A DNA stretch of 40,504 nt from Nitrosomonas eutropha (GTDB taxonomy: Bacteria; Pseudomonadota; Gammaproteobacteria; Burkholderiales; Nitrosomonadaceae): contig NZ_QICQ01000026.1 of the NCBI RefSeq assembly GCF_003201195.1, positions 1 through 40,504 of the forward strand. The letters run 5' to 3'. This document shows positions 19,740-36,056 of this stretch, piece by piece; positions within the stretch are counted from its first letter, which is position 1; each line of letters starts with the position of its first letter. The notes under the pieces are model-generated. The model was given only the letters and a program-made list of their open reading frames with translations, did not search any database and was not told where the DNA came from. The position numbers and the translations under genes are program-made.

Positions 19740-20476
19740 ATCTCAATCCCTTTGAAATCAGGGCATGGGTGTTTCAATTATGTACACGATATACCCGGCT
19801 CAAAACAAGTCTCAATCCCTTTGAAATCAGGGCATGGGTGTTTCTCACTCGACCCAATACCAAATGATACAAACGTTCGTCTCAATCCCTTTGAAATCAG
19901 GGCATGGGTGTTTCTATAGTAGTTATATTAATACGCTGTTTAAGACAGCGGTCTCAATCCCTTTGAAATCAGGGCATGGGTGTTTCTGTTTGGAAAGTTT
20001 AAAATCAAGGATGGCCAGCGTCTCAATCCCTTTGAAATCAGGGCATGGGTGTTTCCGTGTACAAATGGGCGCAAGCGGAAGATCCAAACGTCTCAATCCC
20101 TTTGAAATCAGGGCATGGGTGTTTCTTTGCCGCCACCGTCAAGCACGCTCACGAGATCAGTCTCAATCCCTTTGAAATCAGGGCATGGGTGTTTCCCTGC
20201 AACCAAGAAGAATTGGAAGATTTCCTCACGGTCTCAATCCCTTTGAAATCAGGGCATGGGTGTTTCCATACGCGTACGCCAATCCCCAATCAGGTGAAGG
20301 TCTCAATCCCTTTGAAATCAGGGCATGGGTGTTTCGGTAAATGAAGGCGGAGAAGGTTACTCATCATACGGTCTCAATCCCTTTGAAATCAGGGCATGGG
20401 TGTTTCGACCTGTCAGATGCTGGTGTCAATGTTCTTAGTTGTCTCAATCCCTTTGAAATCAGGGCATGGGTGTTTC
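19740..20476 (-). CRISPR. CRISPR array 1: 11 repeats, 10 spacers
   Basis: The repeat is 36 bp, on the plus strand beginning GTCTCAATCCC and ending GGGTGTTTC. Copies start at 19740, 19809, 19879, 19951, 20020, 20090, 20160, 20231, 20300, 20371 and 20441. Spacers are 33-36 bp and all differ. The copy at 19740 has its first base changed (A for G), marking the old, trailer end. The leader is at the right end, so the array is transcribed on the minus strand. In that sense the repeat ends ATTGAGAC, which would give the 8-nt type III crRNA 5' handle. The spacer at 19915-19950 contains a perfect 6-bp hairpin (CGCTGT/ACAGCG). Confidence 0.98.
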
Positions 20477-22310: not shown

Positions 22311-22583
22311 TGTAGGGTTTACCTTGCGCAGACTGTACGCCGGCAAGCTTGCCACTGGCAGCATCAAACAGACCAGTATCAGTAACTATCTGTGTACATT
22401 GTTTGCCGGATGGATCGTAATATTTGCGATGATGCCGCACTATATGCGGGATGCGACAGATACCAATAGTGGTCCTGATCAAACATCAACTGGGAGAAAT
22501 GGCTCGGCGTTTTGAACAGTGCGATCTCGGTGATGCCATGGATTTTGGGAAGAATGCGAATTAAAATGCGCACGGAGATTGCC
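22311..22583 (-). other. Promoter region of the adaptation cassette, with unexplained sequence
   Basis: This stretch separates cas2 from the decayed ccdA and should hold the promoters of both. The palindrome GGCAAGCTTGCC is at 22342-22353. Open frames on the minus strand here (up to 22645) have no Shine-Dalgarno and no recognisable motif. I see no supportable gene. Confidence 0.5.
22342..22353. promoter_or_regulatory. 12-bp perfect palindrome upstream of cas2-cas1-cas2
   Basis: GGCAAGCTTGCC lies 32 nt before the cas2 start. The same 12-mer occurs upstream of cas10 (33698-33709) and of the unknown 310-aa gene (34887-34898). One-mismatch forms are at 24800-24811 and 31035-31046. It may be a regulator-binding site or the stem of an RNA hairpin. 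Confidence 0.45.
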
Positions 22584-23188: not shown

Positions 23189-24319
23189 TTAATCTTGCTT
23201 GTTGTCAAAGCCGCTGATCTGAATACTTTCCGGCGGCAAGGTCAGGCCGCGCCGGGTATGCGGACGCTTACCGGCAGTCATCAATAGATAGGGAGTTGCT
23301 GCCGAACCAAGTGCATCTTTTAATATACGCTCCACCTTGGCATTTTTGGTCTGAAAAAACTCCTTCTCCATCCCGTTATTGAGTAGCTCGGCAGTTTTCT
23401 CGTAATCAATGACATCAATACCAACTACTGCCCGGTAAATATCGAGAAATAATCCAGCGTCAGCTTCACGCCAGGTTGTTTCAGGCTGTCCCTGTCGGGC
23501 AAGCGTAGCCCACCACGCCAGCCAGGCAAGTAATTGCGGTTTCATGGTAACTGTAGTTGTGCCACAGACAACGTGTCTTTGCTCCAGATCGATCAGCAGG
23601 CGTGGTGGTGCAAAACTTTGCTGCAAGGTGGCGACAGTTTCACTGAATCCTGCACGACCGGTGATTAACGCAACAGGAAGGCCGTGTCGCAACCGTACCA
23701 CAGGAATTTCAGCCAGGGTGACAACGGCCTCAGCGGTATCAATATGATGCCCATCCCGTGTTACCAGTCGACGGGGCTGACGAGGCGGATAGAAAAAATC
23801 CGGATGCCCTTCAAAGGGGGATGAAACCAGAATATGAGAGAGCGTATCCTGCGGCCGGGCAAACAGTGAGAAGGCATAACCGAGATAAAAGCCCATGGTC
23901 TTGCGCCCGCCGGCAATCGAAACATGCAGCGCCGCATCTGCGTTGCCGGTCAGTTGAGCGACAAGCGCCGTGATTGTGTCAGCTGCGGCGGCATTTTCGG
24001 CTGGTGTGCGAATATCGGCGAGCTTTTTCTGATGATGGCTGATGATGTGGATGCAGTCTTCATCAAAACGAGGATGGCCGATCTGCGGTTGATCATTCAG
24101 CAGCGCATGGAAATGGCCACCATCGGGATGCAGCAATGCTGCCCGCGCCAATCGCGCTCCATCAGTGGTGGTCAGTAAATGTACCTCTGTCGGAATGAAG
24201 GGTGGGGTCCGTGCCACAGCCAGGGCATACAGCGTTTCAGTAACAATCTGCGGTGACAGTCCTGTAACACATAGCAGGATGCGACGCGGATATTCATGGG
24301 GTTGCAGTAGTTTTGACAT
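23189..24319 (-). CDS. CRISPR-associated CARF protein, NE0113 family
   Basis: 376 aa. It matches the family first defined from Nitrosomonas europaea NE0113 (TIGR02584/PF09623; some annotations call it a Csm6-like ring nuclease). The CARF (cyclic oligoadenylate-binding) domain covers about residues 12-180: RRILLCVTGLSPQIVTETLYAL, EVHLLTTTDGARLAR, and the ligand-loop HVSIAGGRKTMGFYLGYA (S134-T141), then VSSPFEGHPDFFYPP. The C-terminal ~120 residues look helical or winged-helix (AELLNNGMEKEFFQTKNAKVERILKDALG). I see no HEPN RxxxxH motif. It may therefore degrade or sense cyclic oligoadenylate rather than cut RNA; family-level inference only. Confidence 0.88.
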   Translation of the reverse strand: MSKLLQPHEYPRRILLCVTGLSPQIVTETLYALAVARTPPFIPTEVHLLTTTDGARLARAALLHPDGGHFHALLNDQPQIGHPRFDEDCIHIISHHQKKLADIRTPAENAAAADTITALVAQLTGNADAALHVSIAGGRKTMGFYLGYAFSLFARPQDTLSHILVSSPFEGHPDFFYPPRQPRRLVTRDGHHIDTAEAVVTLAEIPVVRLRHGLPVALITGRAGFSETVATLQQSFAPPRLLIDLEQRHVVCGTTTVTMKPQLLAWLAWWATLARQGQPETTWREADAGLFLDIYRAVVGIDVIDYEKTAELLNNGMEKEFFQTKNAKVERILKDALGSAATPYLLMTAGKRPHTRRGLTLPPESIQISGFDNKQD

Positions 24320-24658: not shown

Positions 24659-24815
24659 TTTGTTCTCCTTGATTTGAAAAAGTAAATCATTTCCAATGTA
24701 GGCAGATAACTCGGTCATACCTTGCATGGATTCATGACACAACACGAGAAAATCTGACAGATGCAAAGTTTATCGTTTTGCATTGCCATGATGGCGCATG
24801 ACAAGCTTGCCGTTA

Positions 24816-26274
<1,459 letters not shown>

Positions 26275-26278
<4 letters not shown>

Positions 26279-27231
26279 GCAACACAAATTTGATAGTGGC
26301 CCAGCCCGAAGCTGGCGTTTTTACCGGCATGCAGCCATTGCCCGAACCATAATGCCGGCCAGAATGCAGATAGCTTGCCGTGCAAATTCCAGCGACCGGT
26401 AACGCCACCCAGTGCCATTTCCTGTTGTTGACGGCTGGAATAACGCTTCCAATCGCGCCAGGAAAGTTGTCGGTTACCCTGGATGCTGCTGGCCAGTTCA
26501 CCCAGATGGTGAAAATCCGGTTGCCAGGCAAGCTCGCCATGAAATTCGCTCATTAGTGCAAGCCGTCGCACCAGCGCCATCAACAAAGCACGCTCAGTAA
26601 TGGTTTGCGCCTTAAGGGGAACTCCGTTATTTTGCAGACGCAGCGGGGTGACAAGATGCAGGCGCACGCTGTCGCCGGGCAAAGGTGGGCAAGCCAATCG
26701 TGTGTCATGTTTCTGAATGCTGCCATTTTCCGGTGTGTAAATGGCCAGCGAAGATTCCGGTCGTTCCAGCCAGATACCCATCAGCTCTGCTTGCCCATTG
26801 CTTGAGCCAATCCCGCGCGCCAGTGCCCGCCGCCAGGCAAGGATGGCAATGGGCAGTTCCTCCACGGCACGACCAACCAGCGTAAAATGGAAAGTCAGCG
26901 TATCCCCGGGGTGCAGCACGCGCGCGCCCCACTCGGGGGGCTCGATGATATAAGGAGCCGGAATCCTGCTGAAATCCTGCAATGGGTGATGTTCCGGCGG
27001 AACCGACTCGAACAGCAGGGTATAGGGGCAATCGCGCCGTAACGGGCAGGTTGCACAATCTTTCTCGCGTGTGATACAGCCTATGCTGCGCAGAGCATGT
27101 CCAAATGCACCGCGTAACATGGAACCGGCATAATCCGGCAATCGAATCGAACGAGTTACTCGCCAGTCAAGGCGGTAACGCCCCAACGACAGGACAGGAG
27201 AGGCAGGTTCAGTCAGGTAATGTGTATTCAT
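26275..27231 (-). CDS. cas6: crRNA-processing endoribonuclease Cas6 (RAMP)
   Basis: 318 aa; cuts the precursor crRNA within repeats. It belongs to the PF10040-type Cas6 branch. LPDYAGSMLRGAFGHALRSIGC is followed by the cysteine cluster CATCPLRRDCPY (with the preceding Cys), probably a zinc site. LTPEN-type middle segments follow, and the C-terminal half has GVTGRWNLHGKLSAFWPALWFGQ and the glycine-rich loop AGKNASFGLGHYQI typical of RAMP folds. It lies 22 bp after csm5 and is coupled to csx16. Confidence 0.93.
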
Positions 27232-27253: not shown

Positions 27254-28855
27254 TTAGAGGCGTAAGGCTGACAACTTCAGCTTTTTACGTTCCTCCTTAA
27301 GTTCCACCTTGACCAGTTTGGGCAGCCATTCTTCGATCGCATCGGCAACAGCATGTTTCTCGTTGATTGTCCAGTCCGCGCCTTCCTGCGCTGCTTTTAC
27401 CAATGCCCGTGCTTCATTGTGAATAGCAGCATTGGGATTTTCCTTGCCGCCCCGGAGCTGCTCCGCGCGCCGAACACACCTGGATACAAAAGCCTCAACA
27501 CGGCGCTGATTCTCCGTCATGGCCGCCAGTGCAGCTTCACGAGCGGCTTGTGCTGCGGCTTTGGCCTGCTCGGCTGCAGCGGCTTCTGCCTGGCGGCGGA
27601 CTGCTTCTTCACGAGCTTTGGCACGATTCGCGATACGCTCGTCAGCTGCTACGATGCGCTCACCATGCGCTTCCAGAATCGGCGTTGCATATTTATTAAC
27701 TTGATTTTGTACAGCGGCTGCCAGATATTGGTGTGCATCATCACAAGCATGCACCCAGATCCAGCCAAATGGCAGCAGATGACTGGTCGCTGCGCGCGTT
27801 GTACTGGCAAAGCGTTTTTCGGTAGTGGTGGGTCTATATTGATCCGGCTTTCCATTTGGAGTTTTAATTTTGATGCTGCGTACTCCTTCCAGCGTGAGGG
27901 ATTCAGCGCCTGAATGCTTGCCAACACGCAGCAAAAATCCCTGCCGTGTTTTCATCAGCTCGCCCAATTCTCCGGCCAGTAATTGTTTGATTAATGTGCG
28001 CCACTGCGGATCAAACAGTGTGCGGAATTGTTCATGATCAAGCTCATTTTCCAGTTGTGGGCGGTAAAACGCATTACAGGCATCACATAAGGATTGCCAG
28101 CCGATTCTGCCCGTCAACCGCAACTCGCCCGCAAAGGCATCAACCATGGTTTCCCGCACAGTCTCAAGAAATACCTTGAGTTCAGGTGAACTGCCGCGCT
28201 CGCTCGGTTTCTTCTTTTTGCTGACGGCATAAATGATGCGCGTAGGTGGTGCCATACGATCATCTGGCACACGCGCATCCGCCAGCGCCACGCTGCGAAA
28301 AGGATCATTTTCAAATTTACCTGCCTGATAACCCAGCAACCGTTGCTGAAGCTGTGTCGGGCTTTCTTGCTTTTCAAGCAAAGGCTTTCCTCTGTTCTGA
28401 TAATTCAGCCAGGCGGTACGGATCGCACCTTTGAGCGAACTGCCGGGCAGATACGGCGCACCATCCAGCGGCTTGAAGGCTGTGCGCGCCATGGGGAACA
28501 GATTGTAAACAGTCCTGCCATCCCCACTTCGCTGCTGTGGCTTGCCAGATTTTTCCTCATATTCATGGGCAATATCCGGTGCAACATCCACCCATTGACT
28601 GGCAATTTGCGCAAGCCGGGCGCGTCTTTCCTTGAAAAAATGCTGGATCGAACCGATTGGTTGGCGGCTATCGGCCAGTTGTATTAGCTGCTGCTTCTCT
28701 TTTTCATCAAGCTCAGCGGCAATATCTGCCGGATCAAGTACATGCAGCAACCCTTCATTGATAACAAAATTGGTCGGCTCAAAAACCTCATCGCAGCCAA
28801 TATGTACTGGCGATAACGTGGAAATTTTCAGTGGATAGCTATGCGGGGCCATCAT
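27254..28855 (-). CDS. csm5: Csm5, type III-A RAMP, with long C-terminal extension
   Basis: 533 aa; caps the 3' end of the crRNA in the Csm complex and helps its maturation. RAMP features: PLKISTLSPVHIGCDE at the N-terminus and GAPYLPGSSLKGAIRTAWLNY (the glycine-rich loop) near residue 140. Csm5 is usually about 350-420 aa. Here a ~140-residue tail from about residue 395 is Ala/Glu/Arg-rich coiled coil (NRAKAREEAVRRQAEAAAAE...) ending in a basic KVELKEERKKLKL segment. Start overlaps the csm4 stop (ATGA). Confidence 0.92.
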   Translation of the reverse strand: MMAPHSYPLKISTLSPVHIGCDEVFEPTNFVINEGLLHVLDPADIAAELDEKEKQQLIQLADSRQPIGSIQHFFKERRARLAQIASQWVDVAPDIAHEYEEKSGKPQQRSGDGRTVYNLFPMARTAFKPLDGAPYLPGSSLKGAIRTAWLNYQNRGKPLLEKQESPTQLQQRLLGYQAGKFENDPFRSVALADARVPDDRMAPPTRIIYAVSKKKKPSERGSSPELKVFLETVRETMVDAFAGELRLTGRIGWQSLCDACNAFYRPQLENELDHEQFRTLFDPQWRTLIKQLLAGELGELMKTRQGFLLRVGKHSGAESLTLEGVRSIKIKTPNGKPDQYRPTTTEKRFASTTRAATSHLLPFGWIWVHACDDAHQYLAAAVQNQVNKYATPILEAHGERIVAADERIANRAKAREEAVRRQAEAAAAEQAKAAAQAAREAALAAMTENQRRVEAFVSRCVRRAEQLRGGKENPNAAIHNEARALVKAAQEGADWTINEKHAVADAIEEWLPKLVKVELKEERKKLKLSALRL

Positions 28856-29820
28856 GCGGATTCCTCCATACAGATTCCCAGCACTGGTGCATAACCCTGG
28901 TGCACTGCCGTCTTTTGCATCAGTGATACCTTTGCCAGGCCATTGCCAATGAAGCGGGTTTGCGCTCTGTTGCCTGTGGGCGTAAAAATGGCGCCGGTTG
29001 CTGCCAGCAGTAACGGCTGCTTAAACGGATTGGCACCCAGCGCCAGCGTGCCGCCATGCCGGCCAAAGCGGGTCAGCACCTGCCAGTAACTGCGCGTGAT
29101 ATCGAAACCCTGCCCTTGCGGTGCACAGGGTGCCAGTGTCCAGTACGCATTGGCATCTGGGTACGTTTGTTTGAATAATGTCGCTTCTTCTATCTGTTCC
29201 ACAGCGAATTTACCCAGGCCAATGCTGGCATCACGGCCGTAGCCAACATTGCCAATATATTCAAGCAACTGGAGCAGTGTTGCGCATGGCAGGCGATCTT
29301 CATCAAGCACACACCACAAATCCATGCGCTGATCCGGTTGATAAAAAATTTGCGACTGGGTGTAGGGTGCAAATTCACCTGTGCCCGTTGTGCCGGTCAG
29401 CCGGTTAAGCGTGTTGTGAAATGCAGCCGCCTGGATCGGCTTGTTCTGTTTACCGCAAACCTCTTTACCGTAAACATCTTCATCAGAGGCGGCGATATCC
29501 AGTAGCTGACGCAGCGGCAAATGTACCTTATCATGTGGAATCCAGCGTTTGCCCTTGGCTTCCTTACGTTTTGCCGGGTCTTCCTCGTTGTTTGCCTGTA
29601 ATGCAGCCGGAACGGTGGGGCGCGGCAGATAGCCACTCGGGAAGCCATCAGAAACTATCAGCCAGGGGCAGCCGGCGGAATAACCGGTGAGCAGGGTTTC
29701 AAGTTTTTCTTCTCCGAGCATTTCGCGGACAGCATGACAAAGCTGACCAAACAAGGTATCACCCGCCAACGGGGTACCCAGTGGCGAACGCAGCCGAAGA
29801 GTTACACGCAGTGGAGTCAT
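28852..29820 (-). CDS. csm4: Csm4, type III-A RAMP
   Basis: 322 aa; a Cas5-like subunit that holds the crRNA 5' handle next to Cas10. RLRSPLGTPLAGDTLFGQLCHAVREMLGE is the typical Csm4 opening (substrate-loop and first helix). PSGYLPRPTVPA and the terminal region with LATGAIFTPTGNRAQTRFIGNGLAKVS-type glycine-rich sequence fit the family. The start is 4 bp after the csm3 stop and it overlaps csm5. Confidence 0.92.
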   Translation of the reverse strand: MTPLRVTLRLRSPLGTPLAGDTLFGQLCHAVREMLGEEKLETLLTGYSAGCPWLIVSDGFPSGYLPRPTVPAALQANNEEDPAKRKEAKGKRWIPHDKVHLPLRQLLDIAASDEDVYGKEVCGKQNKPIQAAAFHNTLNRLTGTTGTGEFAPYTQSQIFYQPDQRMDLWCVLDEDRLPCATLLQLLEYIGNVGYGRDASIGLGKFAVEQIEEATLFKQTYPDANAYWTLAPCAPQGQGFDITRSYWQVLTRFGRHGGTLALGANPFKQPLLLAATGAIFTPTGNRAQTRFIGNGLAKVSLMQKTAVHQGYAPVLGICMEESA

Positions 29821-29824
29821 TGTT

Positions 29825-30541
29825 TCAAGCCGTTTGATTGAATGGGATGATGGCGTGAAACTGTTCCATCAAATCTGTACCGTCGAGCTTCAGCGCCGCA
29901 AATTTGATCTTGCCGTAGCCGCGCGAGCCGGACCCGCCGAGGCTATCCAGTTCCAGCAGTCGCAGACCAAGTAGCACGGTATCAAGCAGATCATCACCCG
30001 CCAATACCTTGAGCGTCAGGGTGAAATCAAAGCATGCACCAGCAATTACCCGTTCGATAAAGCGCGGACTTTCAGCTGTACCAGCAATACGGTTGATGGA
30101 GTTCTCCGACTTGACTTCGGTAATCAGCAAGTTCCGGGAATCGACTTCTTCTATTTTCCAATCGTTGCTCAACGGGCAATCCCAAAAAGCCAAGCGAGTG
30201 GGACCAATGCTGGTGACGAGCTGATCTTCCGCCTTGTCCGGTGCACCACCAAATAGTTTGATAACAGCGCGCCCGGCGGAATTGTTTTCATCCTGGGCAA
30301 GCTGTTTGAATGAATAAGGCGCACCTCCCGCTGCCAGCACCAGGCCGTGACGCCATTCCAGCAAGCTGCGGATTTTGCCTTTCAATGAGGAGCCGGGAAT
30401 ATAAGGCTGACCAGTAAGCGGGTCCTTGACTACCGGGCTGTCGGTTCCCCCGATACGCATTTCACTGTCGCCCGCACCAATATGCAGGCCGGATTGAAGA
30501 ACAATGGTACCGATGATTTTCTGGATTTGAGTCAGTTGCAT
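29825..30541 (-). CDS. csm3: Csm3, type III-A backbone RAMP and target-RNA nuclease
   Basis: 238 aa from the ATG at 30541 (MQLTQIQKIIGTIVLQSGLH), which has an AAAGGA Shine-Dalgarno; the longer open frame overlaps csm2. Csm3 forms the filament along the crRNA and cuts target RNA at 6-nt steps. The catalytic Asp is expected at D34 in IGGTDSPVVKD. The RAMP glycine-rich loop is in PYIPGSSLKGKIRSLLEW, and the C-terminal GGSGSRGYGKIKF is intact. All features suggest an active target RNase. Confidence 0.96.
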   Translation of the reverse strand: MQLTQIQKIIGTIVLQSGLHIGAGDSEMRIGGTDSPVVKDPLTGQPYIPGSSLKGKIRSLLEWRHGLVLAAGGAPYSFKQLAQDENNSAGRAVIKLFGGAPDKAEDQLVTSIGPTRLAFWDCPLSNDWKIEEVDSRNLLITEVKSENSINRIAGTAESPRFIERVIAGACFDFTLTLKVLAGDDLLDTVLLGLRLLELDSLGGSGSRGYGKIKFAALKLDGTDLMEQFHAIIPFNQTA

Positions 30542-30593
30542 GATGGATTCCTTTAGGCGACAAATAATTGGAAAGTTGATGTCACGGGCACAA

Positions 30594-30965
30594 TTAATCT
30601 CTTTTGAAGAACTTAAGAAATCCGAGCATGGCTTCAAAGTGCAGCCGGAAATGATTCAATGTACGCGTATCTGTTACCTGTTTGATGCAACTGTTCAACC
30701 ACTCAACGAATTCCTGGGTGACCAGTTTGCGGCCCTGTGCATAGGCAGCCTTGGCATTAAGCATGTGGATAAACGCTTCATAATCCTTGAATTTTTGTTC
30801 ATCTGTTCCGATGCGTTCCTGCCAACCGACCAGTTCATCATAAAAGCGCCGGATTTGAGTTGATTTGTTTTTGCTTGTGTCCTTATTAAGCAACTCAGCA
30901 ATATCTTTTGCATCTTTCGAAAACAGGGTGGCAGGGGGCGGATTGGTTTTCAGATCAAGTGTCAT
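30594..30965 (-). CDS. csm2: Csm2, type III-A small subunit
   Basis: 123 aa, all-helical small subunit of the Csm complex. The pattern TSKNKSTQIRRFYDELVGWQERI, then MLNAKAAYAQGRKLVTQEFVEWLNSCI and FRLHFEAMLGFLKFFK is characteristic of Csm2. A good Shine-Dalgarno (GGAGA) precedes the ATG. 52 bp separate it from csm3 and about 80 bp from cas10, with a hairpin in the latter gap. Confidence 0.94.
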   Translation of the reverse strand: MTLDLKTNPPPATLFSKDAKDIAELLNKDTSKNKSTQIRRFYDELVGWQERIGTDEQKFKDYEAFIHMLNAKAAYAQGRKLVTQEFVEWLNSCIKQVTDTRTLNHFRLHFEAMLGFLKFFKRD

Positions 30966-31014: not shown

Positions 31015-31046
31015 GCCCGGTTTGATTGCCGGGCGGCAAGCTTGTC
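31015..31046 (-). other. Hairpin and near-palindrome between cas10 and csm2
   Basis: A GC stem GCCCGG/CCGGGC (31015-31034) is followed by a one-mismatch copy (GGCAAGCTTGTC, 31035-31046) of the 12-bp palindrome found in cas promoters. On the minus strand it follows the cas10 stop directly. No strong T-run, so it might attenuate rather than terminate, lowering or stabilising the csm2-onward message. Confidence 0.4.
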
Positions 31047-31047
31047 G

Positions 31048-33630
31048 TCATTGTCGCTGGCGATACAGCAGCACCGAAACTGGCAAGCGGTAAGCGCCGC
31101 GATATTGTTTCAAGGCTTCGCCACATTCACGGGCAAGCGCTTTACCAGTCGCCTGTTGATGTTTCGGCAACCGGGCGCAACGGTACGCCAGGCGTGAACG
31201 CCACAGCGCATCTTCCGGACGGCGATTGGCTGTTTCTGGGCGATCACGTTCCGCCTGGTCAGATAACAACAGCAGGTTGTAGATAAAACCAGTGGATAAA
31301 TTGCCTGCTTCACTGATCAACTGCGCCAGCGCATCGCGACGTTCCTCCATGAGTGTTCGCCACTCAGTCCAGTTGACAGTGACATCCCACAGGCTGACGG
31401 CATTCTTTGCATCGTCATCGTGCCGCTTGGCGGCATGCAATCCGGCTTCGGCAGCAATGGCAAGCTGGCGCGCCGGTACTTTCGGCTGTGTCATGGCGGC
31501 ACCGAGCGAGAAGGTAATATCATCACGCACAACATAACGGGTAAAAGCCTTGCGCATGGCGCTCGCCAGCTCAAGCGTTGATTCCCAGGGGCCGATCAGA
31601 AAAAAATCATCTCCACCGGCAAATACGGTGTAAGTGTTGCGAAAGCGCCCATTTTCACCGTGGGCGCAGTACCACGGCAGCCACAAGGCAAAGAACGCAT
31701 TCACCTGACGAGATAATGCCGCCCAGCTGGCAAAAGTGGGTTCCTCCAACCCGTTCTGGAACAATGCACCCAGGTTGTCAATATCGCCCTTGAGCGTAAC
31801 CAGGGCAATTTCACCCAGCCATTTACCGTTTTCCTGCAACCGACGATTTTCGCAGGCGATATGGTGTAATGTCTTGATTGGGTGCTCACGATCAAATTCA
31901 GCCTCATCTTCCCAGCGACCGTACTTGTCAGATAGTTGCTGATCGAAGTTATCGAATATCGGCACATAACTGTTGACGAAGCGGCGGGCATAACCGTGAA
32001 AACACGAACCATCCGCTTCTGGCAGATCAAAATCCCAGGCGCGTACCAGTTCCCCTTGTTCGGCCAGTTTGCCGTGATGACCGGAAGCATCCGCTTCGTT
32101 GACAAACACCAGGCGGTAGCCGAAGTAATCCAGATCGAGTGGGTTTTTGAAGCTATCAGCTGTGTTCAATACCAGCAGTCGTGCATGTTTGGTGAGCGCT
32201 TCGCCAATGGCGATCTGGTCGCGTGACAACGCGCAGGAAGCTGGTTTTTCTCCCTTGGCGGCGCGATCAGCCGGGTATCGGCCATGATAGCCACAAGGGC
32301 CATCAGTAAAGGAAATTTCGCGCACCGCAGCAGTGTTGTCACACAGGTCAAAACGCCGATGTTTGGCAATATCGAGCTCGGTAAACAGCCGCTGCGTGAG
32401 CGCCTTGAATTGTTTGCTGACCAGATCATTACAACTGGCTGCTGTTTGAGCAATCCCCACACCAATCTCGCCATAGGTGTGCTGCAGGCACCATTGATCG
32501 AAACTGTGTCGACAGGTTTCCACCGCCTCGCGCGCCGATTGGGTATTAGGCGCGACGATGAGAAACTTGCCGGCAGCATTGATAATCTGGCTGGTCGATG
32601 GCAGTTGCAGGGTCTCCAGCAATTTGAGTGCCGCCATTTCAGCTAGCAGTGCCACCTGAAAGGAGCGCCCGCGCAACAGTTTGTGGGCGTGCTTTTGGGT
32701 TTGTGCGCCCTGCGCAAAGATGAAGTTCTGAATTCCGAAAAAATCCCCCTGGATCAACAGCAGCTTTTGTTCATCCCAGTCAGGGCGTTCCGGATTGCTC
32801 AATTTTGCCAGTGCATCGGCACCGGTATTACCGGTTTCCTCGTGCCAGCGCCACAGGGCGGCTGCCAGTGCAGCCACTGCCTTGCTGTGGTCGTAGAGAG
32901 AAACATCTGGTACCACCCCTCGGTTGGTCGCTGAAGGGATGGCCTGTGTGTATGCCAGCCAGGCGGAATCAAAATGATCCAGCCACAGTGGCCAGTTGTT
33001 GCGGTGCGATTGTGGAATGGATGCCAGCGCTTGCATGAATTGCTCCCACAATGCAGCATACTCAGTCTGTGCTGATTTATCTCCGTCCGGCTCAACAGCC
33101 GCACGTTTGTCAGGAAAAATGGCCTCCGGCCCGAGCGCCCGCAGGGGATAGGCATACGCAAACTGGCCGGCAGGGGCCTGTGGATTGGTTCTGATCTGTT
33201 CGAACAAGCTCATCATCCGTGCCTGAAAACGGTTTTTATGCTGCGGCGTTTCCCCTTCGGCATCGGCATTGTATTCGTCAAATTTTTTGCGTTCGAAGCC
33301 TGAAGCAGCCCGATCAGCAGTAGCAATGATCCACTGCAGCAGTGTTCCCGGTTTGTGGTGCGCAGCCGCAGCATTGGCCATGCTGTCGGTAATATCGACA
33401 CCGCTGGTACGGCCAGAGAAAGGAGAGACATCACCGCGCAGAAGATCTGGAGCAAACTTTTCCACGACATCCCACATCCCCCCGGTATGGGCAGCATGCG
33501 AATATTTATAGAGCGTGGTTAGTGCAGCGAGATCACCGTTAACCGGCTGACCGGTTCTTTCGTGAAACTTGCCAAGATCATGTAACAAGGCAGAAAAGGC
33601 TACGCGACAGGATGAATGTAGAAGTGACAT
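31048..33630 (-). CDS. cas10: Cas10/Csm1, type III-A signature subunit
   Basis: About 860 aa from the ATG at 33630 (MSLLHSSCRVAFSALLHDLGK). This start is supported because the 25 nt before it match those before the neighbouring unknown gene's ATG. The HD nuclease domain starts at H17-D18 (SALLHDLGKFHERTG), followed by KYSHAAHTGG. The palm polymerase motif FAGGDDFFLIG is at residues 672-675, so cyclic oligoadenylate synthesis should be intact. The N-terminal HD motif is also complete, so target-activated DNase is likely. It is the largest subunit of the Csm effector. Confidence 0.96.
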   Translation of the reverse strand: MSLLHSSCRVAFSALLHDLGKFHERTGQPVNGDLAALTTLYKYSHAAHTGGMWDVVEKFAPDLLRGDVSPFSGRTSGVDITDSMANAAAAHHKPGTLLQWIIATADRAASGFERKKFDEYNADAEGETPQHKNRFQARMMSLFEQIRTNPQAPAGQFAYAYPLRALGPEAIFPDKRAAVEPDGDKSAQTEYAALWEQFMQALASIPQSHRNNWPLWLDHFDSAWLAYTQAIPSATNRGVVPDVSLYDHSKAVAALAAALWRWHEETGNTGADALAKLSNPERPDWDEQKLLLIQGDFFGIQNFIFAQGAQTQKHAHKLLRGRSFQVALLAEMAALKLLETLQLPSTSQIINAAGKFLIVAPNTQSAREAVETCRHSFDQWCLQHTYGEIGVGIAQTAASCNDLVSKQFKALTQRLFTELDIAKHRRFDLCDNTAAVREISFTDGPCGYHGRYPADRAAKGEKPASCALSRDQIAIGEALTKHARLLVLNTADSFKNPLDLDYFGYRLVFVNEADASGHHGKLAEQGELVRAWDFDLPEADGSCFHGYARRFVNSYVPIFDNFDQQLSDKYGRWEDEAEFDREHPIKTLHHIACENRRLQENGKWLGEIALVTLKGDIDNLGALFQNGLEEPTFASWAALSRQVNAFFALWLPWYCAHGENGRFRNTYTVFAGGDDFFLIGPWESTLELASAMRKAFTRYVVRDDITFSLGAAMTQPKVPARQLAIAAEAGLHAAKRHDDDAKNAVSLWDVTVNWTEWRTLMEERRDALAQLISEAGNLSTGFIYNLLLLSDQAERDRPETANRRPEDALWRSRLAYRCARLPKHQQATGKALARECGEALKQYRGAYRLPVSVLLYRQRQ

Positions 33631-33830
33631 ATAAAAATTATTCCGGTAAACAAGACGATTGCGCATTGTGTATCGTCCATTGACTGACAAGTGCGGGGGC
33701 AAGCTTGCCAAGCAGGATAAACATGCTATCCCTGACAACCTGCATCCGCTGACTGGAACAGGAATAGATGATTCCACCCTGACCGGCCGTTTAATCACAC
33801 GAATACCGGCGAAAGATGGCAGTACTTCTG
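33628..33830 (-). promoter_or_regulatory. cas10 upstream region, duplicate of the region at 34819-35020
   Basis: The cas10 5' region shares in order several blocks with the sequence upstream of the unknown 310-aa gene. These are the ATG-proximal ATAAAAATTAYTCCGGTAA (plus-strand reading), TGCATTGTGTAT-like sequence, the palindrome GGCAAGCTTGCC (33698-33709), GACCGGYC, TCACRCGAATA, and ATGGCAGTACTT-like sequence. On the minus strand GGAA lies about 10 nt before the ATG as a Shine-Dalgarno candidate. It probably holds the cas10 promoter and regulatory site. Confidence 0.7.
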
Positions 33831-33888
33831 CGAAATGAAATAACAAAAGGGTGGAAAAATACTGTTTACAGGCAGTAAATGAACATTT

Positions 33889-34821
33889 TCAGGCTATTTC
33901 TGCCTTGATTGGCGGAAGACCATCGTCTGCGTTTTTCAGAGAGAATCTCTGGATTGCTTCTCGCTCACCCCAACATTTCCGGCAGGGTTCGAGCCCACTG
34001 GCCTGCAGTAAATGAATGGGAAGCACATGGTTGACTACGCGCATCTGCTTCCGGTACAGCTCAAACAGCAGGTTGATCAACTGCCGTTTCAACGTGAAAA
34101 ACTGTTCCACAATCGCTCTCCTTTTAGGATCAGCTGTGCAGGCAAGTGCTTTTTGAATGTGTGGAGCGTGGCGAACTCTTTTGATGACTGCGCCATCATC
34201 TCCATTTTGCATATCGAGAGATACGTCAACAGTTTTACGAATCTGCTGTTGCAGCTCTGCGATCGTCATTGCCGATACGCCCTGAACTCCGCTGTTTTCA
34301 TAGCATACCGATTGAGGGTTAATTTGAATGTGGAACTTGGCACCCACGCGCGCCCAGAAGACATCATCCGGCCTTCCCTTAAGCTCTTTCTTGGTTTGCT
34401 CGCAAAACGCCTGAAATTTTCTAACTTCCTGCGCACCACGCGCGCTAATTTGTGGTGGAACGAGATAATTGGTGAAATCCACAGTGAGATAGTGGCACTC
34501 GTTGGTTTTATGGAATTTTGGCATGCCTACACTAAAAACATACTTAGGCGAGAATGTTTGTTTTTTGATACGCAAGGACTGATACTTCCCCTCTAGCATC
34601 AATTTTTGTACATACAACCGCTCTGCTTCGGGTTGATTCAGGATTGAAGCCAGGCTTTCTTCGTAAATAAAATCAAAAATCCAGTCTATGGATACCCTGC
34701 CTTCTGGTTGCAACCATCCGCCAGAGAGCTTGGTGTAGGTACTCTTGGTTACATACGCCATATCCTTCGCTGCTTTTTCAGTAATCTGATTAACGCGACA
34801 AGTTGGTGCCAGCTCGAACAT
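33889..34821 (-). CDS. Unknown 310-aa protein, candidate type III accessory gene
   Basis: Not recognised. Starts MFELAPTCRV. It has a helical N-terminal part, a central segment KYVFSVGMPKFHKTNECHYL-TVDFTNYLVPP, and a C-terminal CXXC (C280-C283 in EPCRKCWGE). H104, C109, C280 and C283 could form a metal site; other cysteines are C140, C173 and C228. No RxxxxH, CARF, HD or transmembrane pattern was seen. It lies on the cas strand as the first gene of the island, 258 bp ahead of cas10, and its upstream region is a diverged duplicate of that of cas10. A zinc-binding, DNA- or RNA-related protein is possible, but this is a guess. Confidence 0.8.
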   Translation of the reverse strand: MFELAPTCRVNQITEKAAKDMAYVTKSTYTKLSGGWLQPEGRVSIDWIFDFIYEESLASILNQPEAERLYVQKLMLEGKYQSLRIKKQTFSPKYVFSVGMPKFHKTNECHYLTVDFTNYLVPPQISARGAQEVRKFQAFCEQTKKELKGRPDDVFWARVGAKFHIQINPQSVCYENSGVQGVSAMTIAELQQQIRKTVDVSLDMQNGDDGAVIKRVRHAPHIQKALACTADPKRRAIVEQFFTLKRQLINLLFELYRKQMRVVNHVLPIHLLQASGLEPCRKCWGEREAIQRFSLKNADDGLPPIKAEIA

Positions 34822-35020
34822 ATAAAAATTACTCCGGTAAGCAGAACGGAGTGCATTGTGTATTAGCTGCTGGCCGACAAGCTGACGGCAAGCTTGCCGG
34901 TCAGAGTACGTGTTGCCTTGATCAGAATGGAGATATACGATTTCATTTCGGTCGAAGACCGGTCACGCGAATATGGATGAAAAATGGCAATACTTTTACA
35001 AACTGAAAGGACAGAAAAAG
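34819..35020 (-). promoter_or_regulatory. Upstream region of the unknown gene, duplicate of the cas10 region
   Basis: Aligned blocks with 33628-33830 include the ATG-proximal ~28 nt, the 12-bp palindrome at 34887-34898 (66 nt before the ATG, 68 nt in cas10), the GACCGGTC block and AATGGCAATACTT. In this copy the palindrome is extended by CTGAC/GTCAG arms, giving a longer hairpin. The rest, to the leader near 35150, holds no gene I can support. Confidence 0.7.
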
Positions 35021-35149: not shown

Positions 35150-35244
35150 TTATTGTTTGGAGGAGACATCTTGCTGCATCCCGCTATTTTTCCTCTTTGC
35201 CCCGTGCAGTGGATTGATTATAAAGAGAAAAATGACAGCAATCA
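35150..35244 (+). promoter_or_regulatory. CRISPR array 2 leader
   Basis: GGAGACATCTTGC, TTTTTCCTCTTTG, ATTGATTATAAAGAG and AAAAATGACAGCA are shared with the array 1 leader in the same order, ending directly at the first repeat. This fixes transcription of array 2 on the plus strand, away from the cas genes. Confidence 0.88.
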
Positions 35245-36056
35245 GAAACACCCATGCCCTGATTTCAAAGGGATTGAGACCTAAATGTAGGGCTAATATG
35301 AGAACAGCAGCAGCGAAACACCCATGCCCTGATTTCAAAGGGATTGAGACGTCACGAGATTTGACGTACTTTTCACCTATCTCGTAGAAACACCCATGCC
35401 CTGATTTCAAAGGGATTGAGACAGTCCTAGTTTCTTTACTTTGTTATTTATCGCATCGAAACACCCATGCCCTGATTTCAAAGGGATTGAGACCACCTAC
35501 AAATGCGTCATTCAAACATTCATATTTAGAAACACCCATGCCCTGATTTCAAAGGGATTGAGACCCAATACCATTCTGATGCCGGCGCTCATATTCGAAA
35601 CACCCATGCCCTGATTTCAAAGGGATTGAGACACAAGAAAAAAGAAGTGTTCAACATTAGAGATATTGAAACACCCATGCCCTGATTTCAAAGGGATTGA
35701 GACGTTCACATCCAAACACTAATGCATTTGGATGAGACGAAACACCCATGCCCTGATTTCAAAGGGATTGAGACCGGATAGACTTCGACGAGCAAACACC
35801 TTTCCATTGAAACACCCATGCCCTGATTTCAAAGGGATTGAGACGTCGCTGGCCTGTATGGGGTCGATCCGGTTATTTCGAAACACCCATGCCCTGATTT
35901 CAAAGGGATTGAGACCGGATAGACTTCGACGAGCAAACACCTTTCCATTGAAACACCCATGCCCTGATTTCAAAGGGATTGAGACCTAAGGTGATTTCCT
36001 CACCCATATCATCTTCCATAGAAACACCCATGCCCTGATTTCAAAGGGATTGAGTC
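35245..36056 (+). CRISPR. CRISPR array 2: 12 repeats, 11 spacers
   Basis: The 36-bp repeat begins GAAACACCC and ends GGGATTGAGAC, the reverse complement of the array 1 repeat. Copies start at 35245, 35315, 35387, 35458, 35529, 35597, 35668, 35739, 35809, 35880, 35950 and 36021. Spacers are 32-36 bp. The last copy ends GAGTC, a degenerate trailer-end repeat. The spacer at 35775-35808 is identical to that at 35916-35949. The 3' end ATTGAGAC is the expected crRNA 5' handle. Repeats inside contain a short CCCT...AGGG stem for Cas6. Confidence 0.98.

What the first reader, a model, noticed from the sequence alone, without database searches (positions are those of the whole stretch)
33889..34821. 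Unrecognised 310-aa gene at the head of a type III-A island, sharing a duplicated upstream region with cas10
It lies between array 2 and cas10 on the cas strand. I recognise no family. It contains a possible His/Cys metal site (H104, C109, C280, C283), and its 5' region is a diverged copy of that of cas10. A gene expressed like cas10 inside the island could be a new accessory or regulatory component of type III immunity.
Basis: partly seen in the sequence, partly recalled or inferred. Interest (0 to 1): 0.8.

Follow-up and report, generated by a model that had tools for sequence, protein, structure and literature searches.

The report
Plasmid-family gene wired to cas10 promoter
A gene of a so-far unnamed protein family, with distant relatives on small bacterial plasmids, lies beside the type III-A CRISPR genes of a Nitrosomonas behind a second, diverged copy of the DNA that precedes cas10; it is therefore likely switched on together with the CRISPR machinery and is predicted to add an extra layer of defence.

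Summary
The ORF is real: 310 aa, minus strand, between CRISPR array 2 and cas10, matching no Pfam, NCBIfam or PADLOC family. H104, C109, C280 and C283 are invariant, with E65, N176 and I194, in a 15-row alignment reaching plasmid proteins at 17-21% identity. The 5' region is a diverged copy of cas10's (0 of 500 shuffles reach its score). It carries the palindrome GGCAAGCTTGCC, whose three exact copies in the genome precede cas2-cas1, cas10 and this gene. Its first ten codons also resemble cas10's. Orthologues occur in 3 of 85 congeneric genomes (window's own included), all with csm1 and all beside a CRISPR array. Plasmid relatives have no cas gene annotated nearby (10 stretches), so the family is not CRISPR-specific; one branch was recruited. 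Best reading: a self-sufficient, probably zinc-binding defence protein placed under cas10 control by duplication of the cas10 start region. Wiring and family are shown at sequence level; metal, promoter activity, molecular activity and immune role are inferred. Fold and literature searches gave no function.

The parts
33889..34821 (-). gene X: 310-aa protein of an unnamed family (P0001)
   Evidence: ORF; 0 hits in Pfam, NCBIfam, PADLOC; 23 homologues besides itself; dN/dS 0.17-0.18
33973..33984 (-). codons of the C280-x-x-C283 pair (Pro-Cys-x-x-Cys end of the conserved domain)
   Evidence: invariant
33889..33969 (-). C-terminal extension and stop seen only in this genome's copy
   Evidence: orthologues stop after CRKCW(R/L)
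34495..34512 (-). codons of H104 to C109 (Pro-Lys-Phe-His-x4-Cys half of the predicted metal site)
   Evidence: invariant
34832..34835 (-). GGAG ribosome-binding sequence of gene X
   Evidence: read
34818..34898 (-). 5' region of gene X that is a diverged copy of the cas10 5' region
   Evidence: aligned part; 0 of 500 shuffles; the repeat finder D16/D17
33627..33709 (-). the matching 5' region of cas10
34887..34898 (.). palindrome GGCAAGCTTGCC before gene X (65 nt before the ATG)
33698..33709 (.). palindrome GGCAAGCTTGCC before cas10 (67 nt before the ATG)
22342..22353 (.). palindrome GGCAAGCTTGCC before cas2-cas1 (cas2 recognised by eye)
31035..31046 (.). one-mismatch copy of the palindrome before csm2 (69 nt before the ATG)
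24800..24811 (.). one-mismatch copy of the palindrome between csx1 and the NE0113-type gene
35161..35244 (+). leader of array 2 (the part also found at array 1), between gene X's 5' region and the array
   Evidence: 85% identity over 120 nt including the first repeat
35245..36056 (+). CRISPR array 2, 12 repeats
19740..20476 (-). CRISPR array 1, 11 repeats, same repeat in the opposite orientation
31048..33630 (-). cas10/csm1 with HD (residue 17) and GGDD (residue 672) motifs
   Evidence: TIGR02578, 679 bits; motifs
30594..30965 (-). csm2
29825..30637 (-). csm3
28852..29820 (-). csm4
27254..28855 (-). csm5
26275..27231 (-). cas6
24816..26030 (-). csx1-type CARF-HEPN effector
   Evidence: TIGR02221 and PADLOC CARF_HEPN
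23189..24319 (-). NE0113-type CARF protein (NCBIfam: ring nuclease Csm6)
   Evidence: TIGR02584
21019..22074 (-). cas1
   Evidence: PF01867

Best explanation
Gene X belongs to an unnamed family with plasmid-borne relatives and an invariant His/Cys/Cys/Cys signature, sits behind a duplicated copy of the cas10 upstream region in the type III-A island, and so is likely expressed with Cas10 and likely works as a self-sufficient auxiliary defence protein beside the Csm complex. Shown at sequence level: the family, the invariant residues, the duplicated 5' region with its palindrome in three Nitrosomonas species, the cas10-like first codons, purifying selection, and co-occurrence with csm1. Inferred: that the duplication carries a working promoter and operator; that H104/C109/C280/C283 bind zinc and hold the helical insertion between them in place; that the protein acts on nucleic acid (one relative carries S1 RNA-binding domains); and that its activity protects against plasmids or phages without needing Cas proteins, since its plasmid relatives have no annotated cas neighbours. 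Proposed history: the cas10 start region, including about ten codons, was duplicated, and a plasmid-type gene came to stand behind the extra copy, once, before the three species parted.
For: Family: 24 proteins with P0001, itself included, 35 with a 15-row profile, 27 with a more distant profile (the sets overlap), 11 plasmid records. Signature: E65, H104, C109, N176, I194, C280, C283 invariant in 15 rows that I chose, 12 of them 15-35% identical to P0001. Wiring: 5' copy; exact palindrome 3 of 3 genome copies in the island, 6 of 27 at up to one mismatch; of 21 exact copies in seven genomes, 16 lie within 9 kb of cas10 on its contig and one directly before X in G040. First ten codons: 14 of 27 nt after the ATG identical in each of three genomes, reached by 63, 114 and 113 of 20,000 shuffles. 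The nearest relatives outside this branch, P0013 and P0014 (predicted starts on contigs under 1 kb), begin at the M-D-V-A-Y-V-T that follows. The ten extended proteins are one clade among 27 rows, support 100/100. Co-occurrence: X in 3 of 85 congeneric genomes, Csm1 over cut-off in 19 of 85 including those three, Fisher p 0.0098. Co-inheritance: dS of X to the two orthologues 0.99 and 1.12, of cas10 0.92 and 0.79. Autonomy: no cas gene annotated in 10 plasmid stretches; 4 of these 10 carry a recognised defence gene (restriction-modification twice, viperin, SspE-like). Not core: missing in 16 of 19 Csm1 genomes.
Against: No expression, binding or defence data exist here. Only three genomes show the CRISPR link, and in one (G040) X and cas10 lie on separate contig ends carrying an antitoxin and two parts of a PIN-domain gene. 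The genome with the closest cas10 (G012, dS 0.32) lacks X, so it is dispensable. The cas10 upstream regions of G023 and G024 gave no hit to those of X at E 0.01. Defence genes near plasmid relatives have no baseline, and the plasmid collection was the one I searched, so the share of plasmid members is biased; G251 holds one on its chromosome. No relative was found in 50,697 phage records (three queries) or in five scans of viral contigs, and no member has a tested function. X diverges faster than its neighbours: 66.8-70.7% identity to two genomes against 79.7-90.5% for nine other genes, csm5 of G040 (46.9%) excepted, compatible with weak constraint.
Confidence: 0.5

Rival explanations
1. X is a loosely held subunit or RNA-binding cofactor of the Csm complex or of crRNA handling, rather than a self-sufficient defence protein.
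For: It shares cas10's 5' region and palindrome, sits directly before cas10 in two genomes, and one family member is fused to S1 RNA-binding domains.
Against: Absent from 16 of 19 Csm1-bearing genomes of the genus; plasmid relatives have no annotated cas neighbour in the 10 stretches read; it diverges faster than the Csm subunits, csm5 of G040 excepted.
Confidence: 0.17
2. X is a plasmid-stability or selfish gene that was captured with a cas promoter and hitch-hikes in the island without an immune role.
For: Relatives are on small plasmids, one of 2.6 kb with no other annotated gene; three sit near toxin-antitoxin genes; an antitoxin and PIN pieces lie between X and cas10 in G040; G012 lacks X.
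Against: dN/dS 0.17-0.18 and retention in three species with dS near 1; the island palindrome, exact or with one changed letter, is kept at X in all three genomes.
Confidence: 0.17
3. X is a second-messenger effector without a CARF or SAVED domain, activated by the cyclic nucleotides that this GGDD-bearing Cas10 is expected to make, as reported for membrane proteins such as Csx23.
For: Six relatives (P0018, P0019, P0022, P0028, P0035, P0036) read by eye as membrane-anchored at the N terminus with this domain at the C terminus, a layout like that of Csx23 as described in a passage of PMC11229360.
Against: X itself shows no membrane segment by eye; plasmid relatives have no annotated cas10 nearby to supply a messenger; no CARF or SAVED model matched.
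Confidence: 0.1
4. X is the transcription regulator that binds GGCAAGCTTGCC and controls the cas genes.
For: The palindrome precedes X itself, as in autoregulation.
Against: The palindrome or a one-letter variant precedes cas10 in the four genomes of this Csm1 type that lack X (G006, G012, G023, G024); fold searches showed no convincing DNA-binding match, which is weak evidence.
Confidence: 0.05

Closest known systems
Type III CRISPR accessory (ancillary) gene families
   Same: Encoded in the cas10 island, co-oriented with cas genes, patchy among otherwise alike islands
   Different: No CARF, SAVED or known effector model matched; family not in NCBIfam or PADLOC; relatives also lie outside CRISPR loci
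Csx23 (membrane effector with a non-CARF sensor domain; passage in PMC11229360)
   Same: Some relatives of X combine an N-terminal membrane anchor with a soluble C-terminal domain (by eye)
   Different: X has no such anchor; not compared directly with Csx23
Ada-type and similar small zinc-binding modules with His-x4-Cys ... Cys-x-x-Cys (recalled, no call)
   Same: Spacing of the two halves and the Gly-Leu-x-Pro-Cys-x-x-Cys ending resemble them
   Different: 170 residues separate C109 from C280; joined halves matched no Pfam family
Uncharacterised plasmid proteins such as WP_176705042 (pA6H2), WP_130118209 (Acinetobacter) and BBS39864 (Enterobacter)
   Same: Same invariant E/H/C/N/I/C/C residues over the whole length
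   Different: No cas genes annotated nearby; no N-terminal extension like cas10's; 17-21% identity to X

Membership tests
Type III CRISPR accessory gene | Encoded within or beside a cas10 locus in several genomes | tested here: met
   Beside a CRISPR array of the island's repeat in 3 of 3 genomes; next to cas10 in 2, with a contig break and toxin-antitoxin pieces between in the third
Type III CRISPR accessory gene | Occurs with cas10 more often than expected | tested here: met
   3 of 3 X genomes have Csm1 over cut-off, 19 of 85 overall; Fisher p 0.0098; only three cases, not corrected for kinship
Type III CRISPR accessory gene | Family largely confined to CRISPR loci | tested here: not met
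   11 plasmid records hold relatives; no cas gene is annotated in the 10 stretches read. This lowers the claim for the family, not for the Nitrosomonas branch
Type III CRISPR accessory gene | Contributes to type III immunity | not testable with these tools
   needs an interference assay
Core Csm subunit (Csm2-Csm5, Cas10) | Present in essentially all islands of the type | tested here: not met
   Absent from 16 of 19 genomes with Csm1 over cut-off
CARF/SAVED cyclic-nucleotide effectors | Match to a CARF, SAVED or HEPN model | tested here: inconclusive
   No match in Pfam, NCBIfam or PADLOC; structure search had no row at E up to 0.001, which does not exclude a distant fold
Zinc-binding protein (His-x4-Cys / Cys-x-x-Cys) | Four ligand residues conserved across the family | tested here: met
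   invariant (truncated rows left out)
Zinc-binding protein (His-x4-Cys / Cys-x-x-Cys) | The four residues meet in space and bind metal | not testable with these tools
   model pLDDT 81 but no coordinate file was at hand
Ada-type zinc module | Sequence match to a known zinc-module family | tested here: inconclusive
   six joined half-site sequences gave 0 Pfam families at E up to 10; HMMER filters drop weak matches
cas transcription regulator | Palindrome present only where X is present | tested here: not met
   exact or one-letter variant before cas10 in G006, G012, G023, G024, which lack X

The most novel reading that the evidence does not exclude
X founds a new family of metal-dependent immune proteins that plasmids carry as stand-alone weapons and that Nitrosomonas built into its type III-A system by duplicating the cas10 control region, start codon included: a captured plasmid defence gene now under CRISPR command, within a cas regulon marked by one palindrome.
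Probability: 0.35. Interest if true: 0.8.

Novelty: new variant of a known kind. Interest (0 to 1): 0.6.

Why it matters
Type III systems are known for recruiting accessory genes, but how a foreign gene comes under cas control is seldom visible (recalled, not searched). Here the join can still be read: a second cas10 upstream region, palindrome, ribosome-binding site and first codons in front of an unrelated gene. The protein belongs to a family found on plasmid records of Acinetobacter, Aeromonas, Enterobacter, Raoultella, Pseudomonas and Bacteroidota, with seven invariant residues and no assigned function, so testing one small plasmid relative in a laboratory E. coli would bear on many. The palindrome gives a direct handle on the unknown regulator of these islands.

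Full report
What is there. Upstream of it on the cas strand lies CRISPR array 2; downstream lies cas10. The island holds cas10/csm1, csm2, csm3, csm4, csm5, cas6, a CARF-HEPN csx1, an NE0113-type CARF gene and cas1 (plus a cas2 recognised by eye), and two arrays with one repeat in opposite orientation. Cas10 keeps HD and GGDD motifs. Gene X itself matched nothing in Pfam, NCBIfam or PADLOC, and only two weak, functionless PHROGs.

The family. Single-sequence search found 24 proteins, X itself included; the closest are 61-73% identical and of Nitrosomonas where a source names them, others 45-49% identical on contigs of up to 3 kb. Profiles gave 35 and 27 hits, overlapping sets, including Aeromonas, Dyadobacter and Rudanella proteins. 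Translated search of 72,556 plasmid records with P0041, a protein 59% identical to the Dyadobacter one, gave 11 records: Acinetobacter 3, Aeromonas 2, and one each of Dyadobacter, Hymenobacter, Pseudomonas, Parabacteroides, Enterobacter and Raoultella. I read stretches around 10 of the 11. Seven residues, E65, H104, C109, N176, I194, C280 and C283, are identical in a 15-row alignment that I chose to span these groups. Homologues that break off or lose frame (P0012, P0015, P0016, P0021) were left out of the alignments that give these counts. Six relatives read by eye as having an N-terminal membrane anchor, and a Hymenobacter relative carries two S1 RNA-binding stretches.

The link to CRISPR. 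In the genus, X is in 3 of 85 genomes, the window's own included; Csm1 passes its cut-off in 19 of 85, including all three (36 of 85 have some match at E 0.001); Fisher p 0.0098. All three carry X next to an array of the island's repeat. In G040, X and cas10 sit at the ends of two contigs; an antitoxin of the Phd family and two parts of a PIN domain lie at those ends, so a toxin-antitoxin pair probably stands between them. Seven genomes share this Csm1 type by its first residues, of 13 loci whose start the script recognised among 19. Of the four without X (G006, G012, G023, G024), one (G023) has an array before cas10, in the other orientation; the others showed no copy of this repeat in the 8-14 kb read upstream.

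The shared 5' region. The 81 nt before and around the X start align with those of cas10 at score 60, against a shuffle maximum of 28 in 500. Across genomes the main matched pieces between X and cas10 upstream regions are 65-78% identical over 54-269 nt; the cas10 regions of G023 and G024 gave no hit to X's at E 0.01. X-to-X and cas10-to-cas10 comparisons are mostly as close or closer, which suggests that the duplication predates the split of the three species. The similarity runs past the start codon: X begins M-F-(E/G/S)-(L/F)-A-(P/A)-(T/S)-C-(R/Q)-V and cas10 of the same genomes M-S-L-L-(H/Q)-S-S-C-R-V; 14 of 27 nt agree in each genome, reached by 63, 114 and 113 of 20,000 shuffles (the three tests are not independent). 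The nearest relatives outside this branch, P0013 and P0014, begin at the following M-D-V-A-Y-V-T, though these are predicted starts on contigs under 1 kb; more distant ones have unrelated N termini. The ten extended proteins form one clade (support 100/100). I read this as one event in which the cas10 start region was doubled and a plasmid-type gene came to stand behind the extra copy.

The palindrome. GGCAAGCTTGCC occurs three times exactly in the 2.67-Mb genome, each time in this island: before cas2-cas1, cas10 and X. With one mismatch allowed there are 27 sites, 6 of them in the island; one of the six (26527) lies inside cas6 and may be chance. Spacing to the ATG is 65 nt at X, 67 at cas10 and 69 at csm2. 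In seven genomes of this Csm1 type there are 21 exact copies, of which 16 lie within 9 kb of cas10 on its contig and one more directly before X on the other contig of G040 (my count: G000 3 of 3, G040 2 plus 1 of 3, G006 3 of 4, G023 4 of 4, G024 2 of 2, G012 2 of 5, G079 0 of 0). G079 has copies with one or two changed first letters instead, three of three in its island, one of them before X. Because islands without X carry it too, X is not its likely reader; because X carries it in all three genomes, X likely belongs to the same regulon. That it is an operator is inferred.

Selection. X has dN/dS 0.17 and 0.18 against its two orthologues, with dS 0.99 and 1.12; cas10 has dN/dS 0.06 in both and dS 0.92 and 0.79. 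X is kept and appears to have travelled with the island about as long as cas10. It changes faster than its neighbours: 66.8-70.7% identity against 79.7-90.5% for nine other genes in the same two genomes, csm5 of G040 (46.9%) excepted and csx1 found in G079 only. G012, nearest in cas10 (dS 0.32), lacks it, which I read as a loss.

How it works. The fold search gave nothing usable. The relatives on plasmids have no cas gene in the annotation read, so the protein's activity should not need Cas proteins. Four of ten plasmid stretches carry a recognised defence gene nearby: an annotated adenine methylase with a BglII/BstYI-type enzyme (PADLOC supports the methylase, not the enzyme), a HaeII-type enzyme and a viperin, and an SspE-like protein; I ran no baseline. 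Three others have toxin-antitoxin genes close by. My commitment is therefore to a self-sufficient auxiliary defence protein, likely zinc-stabilised and likely acting on nucleic acid, brought under cas10's control. The wiring is shown at sequence level; the activity is not.

Limits. Three genomes are few. The PLSDB gene tables are incomplete and larger plasmids were read in part, so 'no cas gene annotated' is weaker than 'no cas gene'; I did not scan those plasmids for arrays. One relative (G251) is on a chromosome, and the record labelled a Parabacteroides plasmid may be chromosomal. Metagenome contigs of the close homologues could not be opened. Novelty in print rests on the searches within an open-access library only.

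Noticed in passing
22342, 33698, 34887 (exact); 24800, 31035 (one mismatch): Palindrome GGCAAGCTTGCC marks the starts of cas2-cas1, cas10, gene X and csm2; a likely operator of an unknown regulator, conserved in related Nitrosomonas islands.
   Followed up: partly
33889-33969: The window's X has about 26 extra C-terminal residues; orthologues stop after CRKCW(R/L). The reading frame differs from the orthologues at their stop.
   Followed up: partly
33630 versus 33846: The longest cas10 ORF starts at a TTG at 33846, but relatives point to the ATG at 33630.
   Followed up: yes
35738-35844 and 35879-35985: A repeat-spacer unit of array 2 occurs twice, 107 of 107 nt identical.
   Followed up: no
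G040 contigs C9 and C21 (L048 103-512, L049 141-377): Antitoxin Phd and two parts of a PIN-domain gene at the contig ends between X and cas10 (the shorter PIN part is below Pfam's cut-off); a whole PIN gene also stands between cas6 and csm5 in G079 (L007 7327-7728).
   Followed up: partly
L055 (AP022137.1), L056, L060: Plasmids of 2.6-8.1 kb in Enterobacter, Raoultella and Aeromonas carry distant relatives of X, in the 2.6-kb one as the only annotated gene. The Enterobacter gene is also on plasmids of 2 E. coli genomes at 99% or more (one over 72% of its length), and a short 84% match lies in a third, 3 of 5426 in all.
   Followed up: partly
L061 (NZ_OY725757.1): A record labelled a Parabacteroides plasmid carries rpmF, era and der, so it may be a chromosome piece.
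   Followed up: no
L057, L058, L059: On three Acinetobacter plasmids the relative of X ends a run of small genes: a DUF4258-annotated or unnamed one, one of 145 aa, one of about 112 aa, then the relative: a possible operon partner set.
   Followed up: partly
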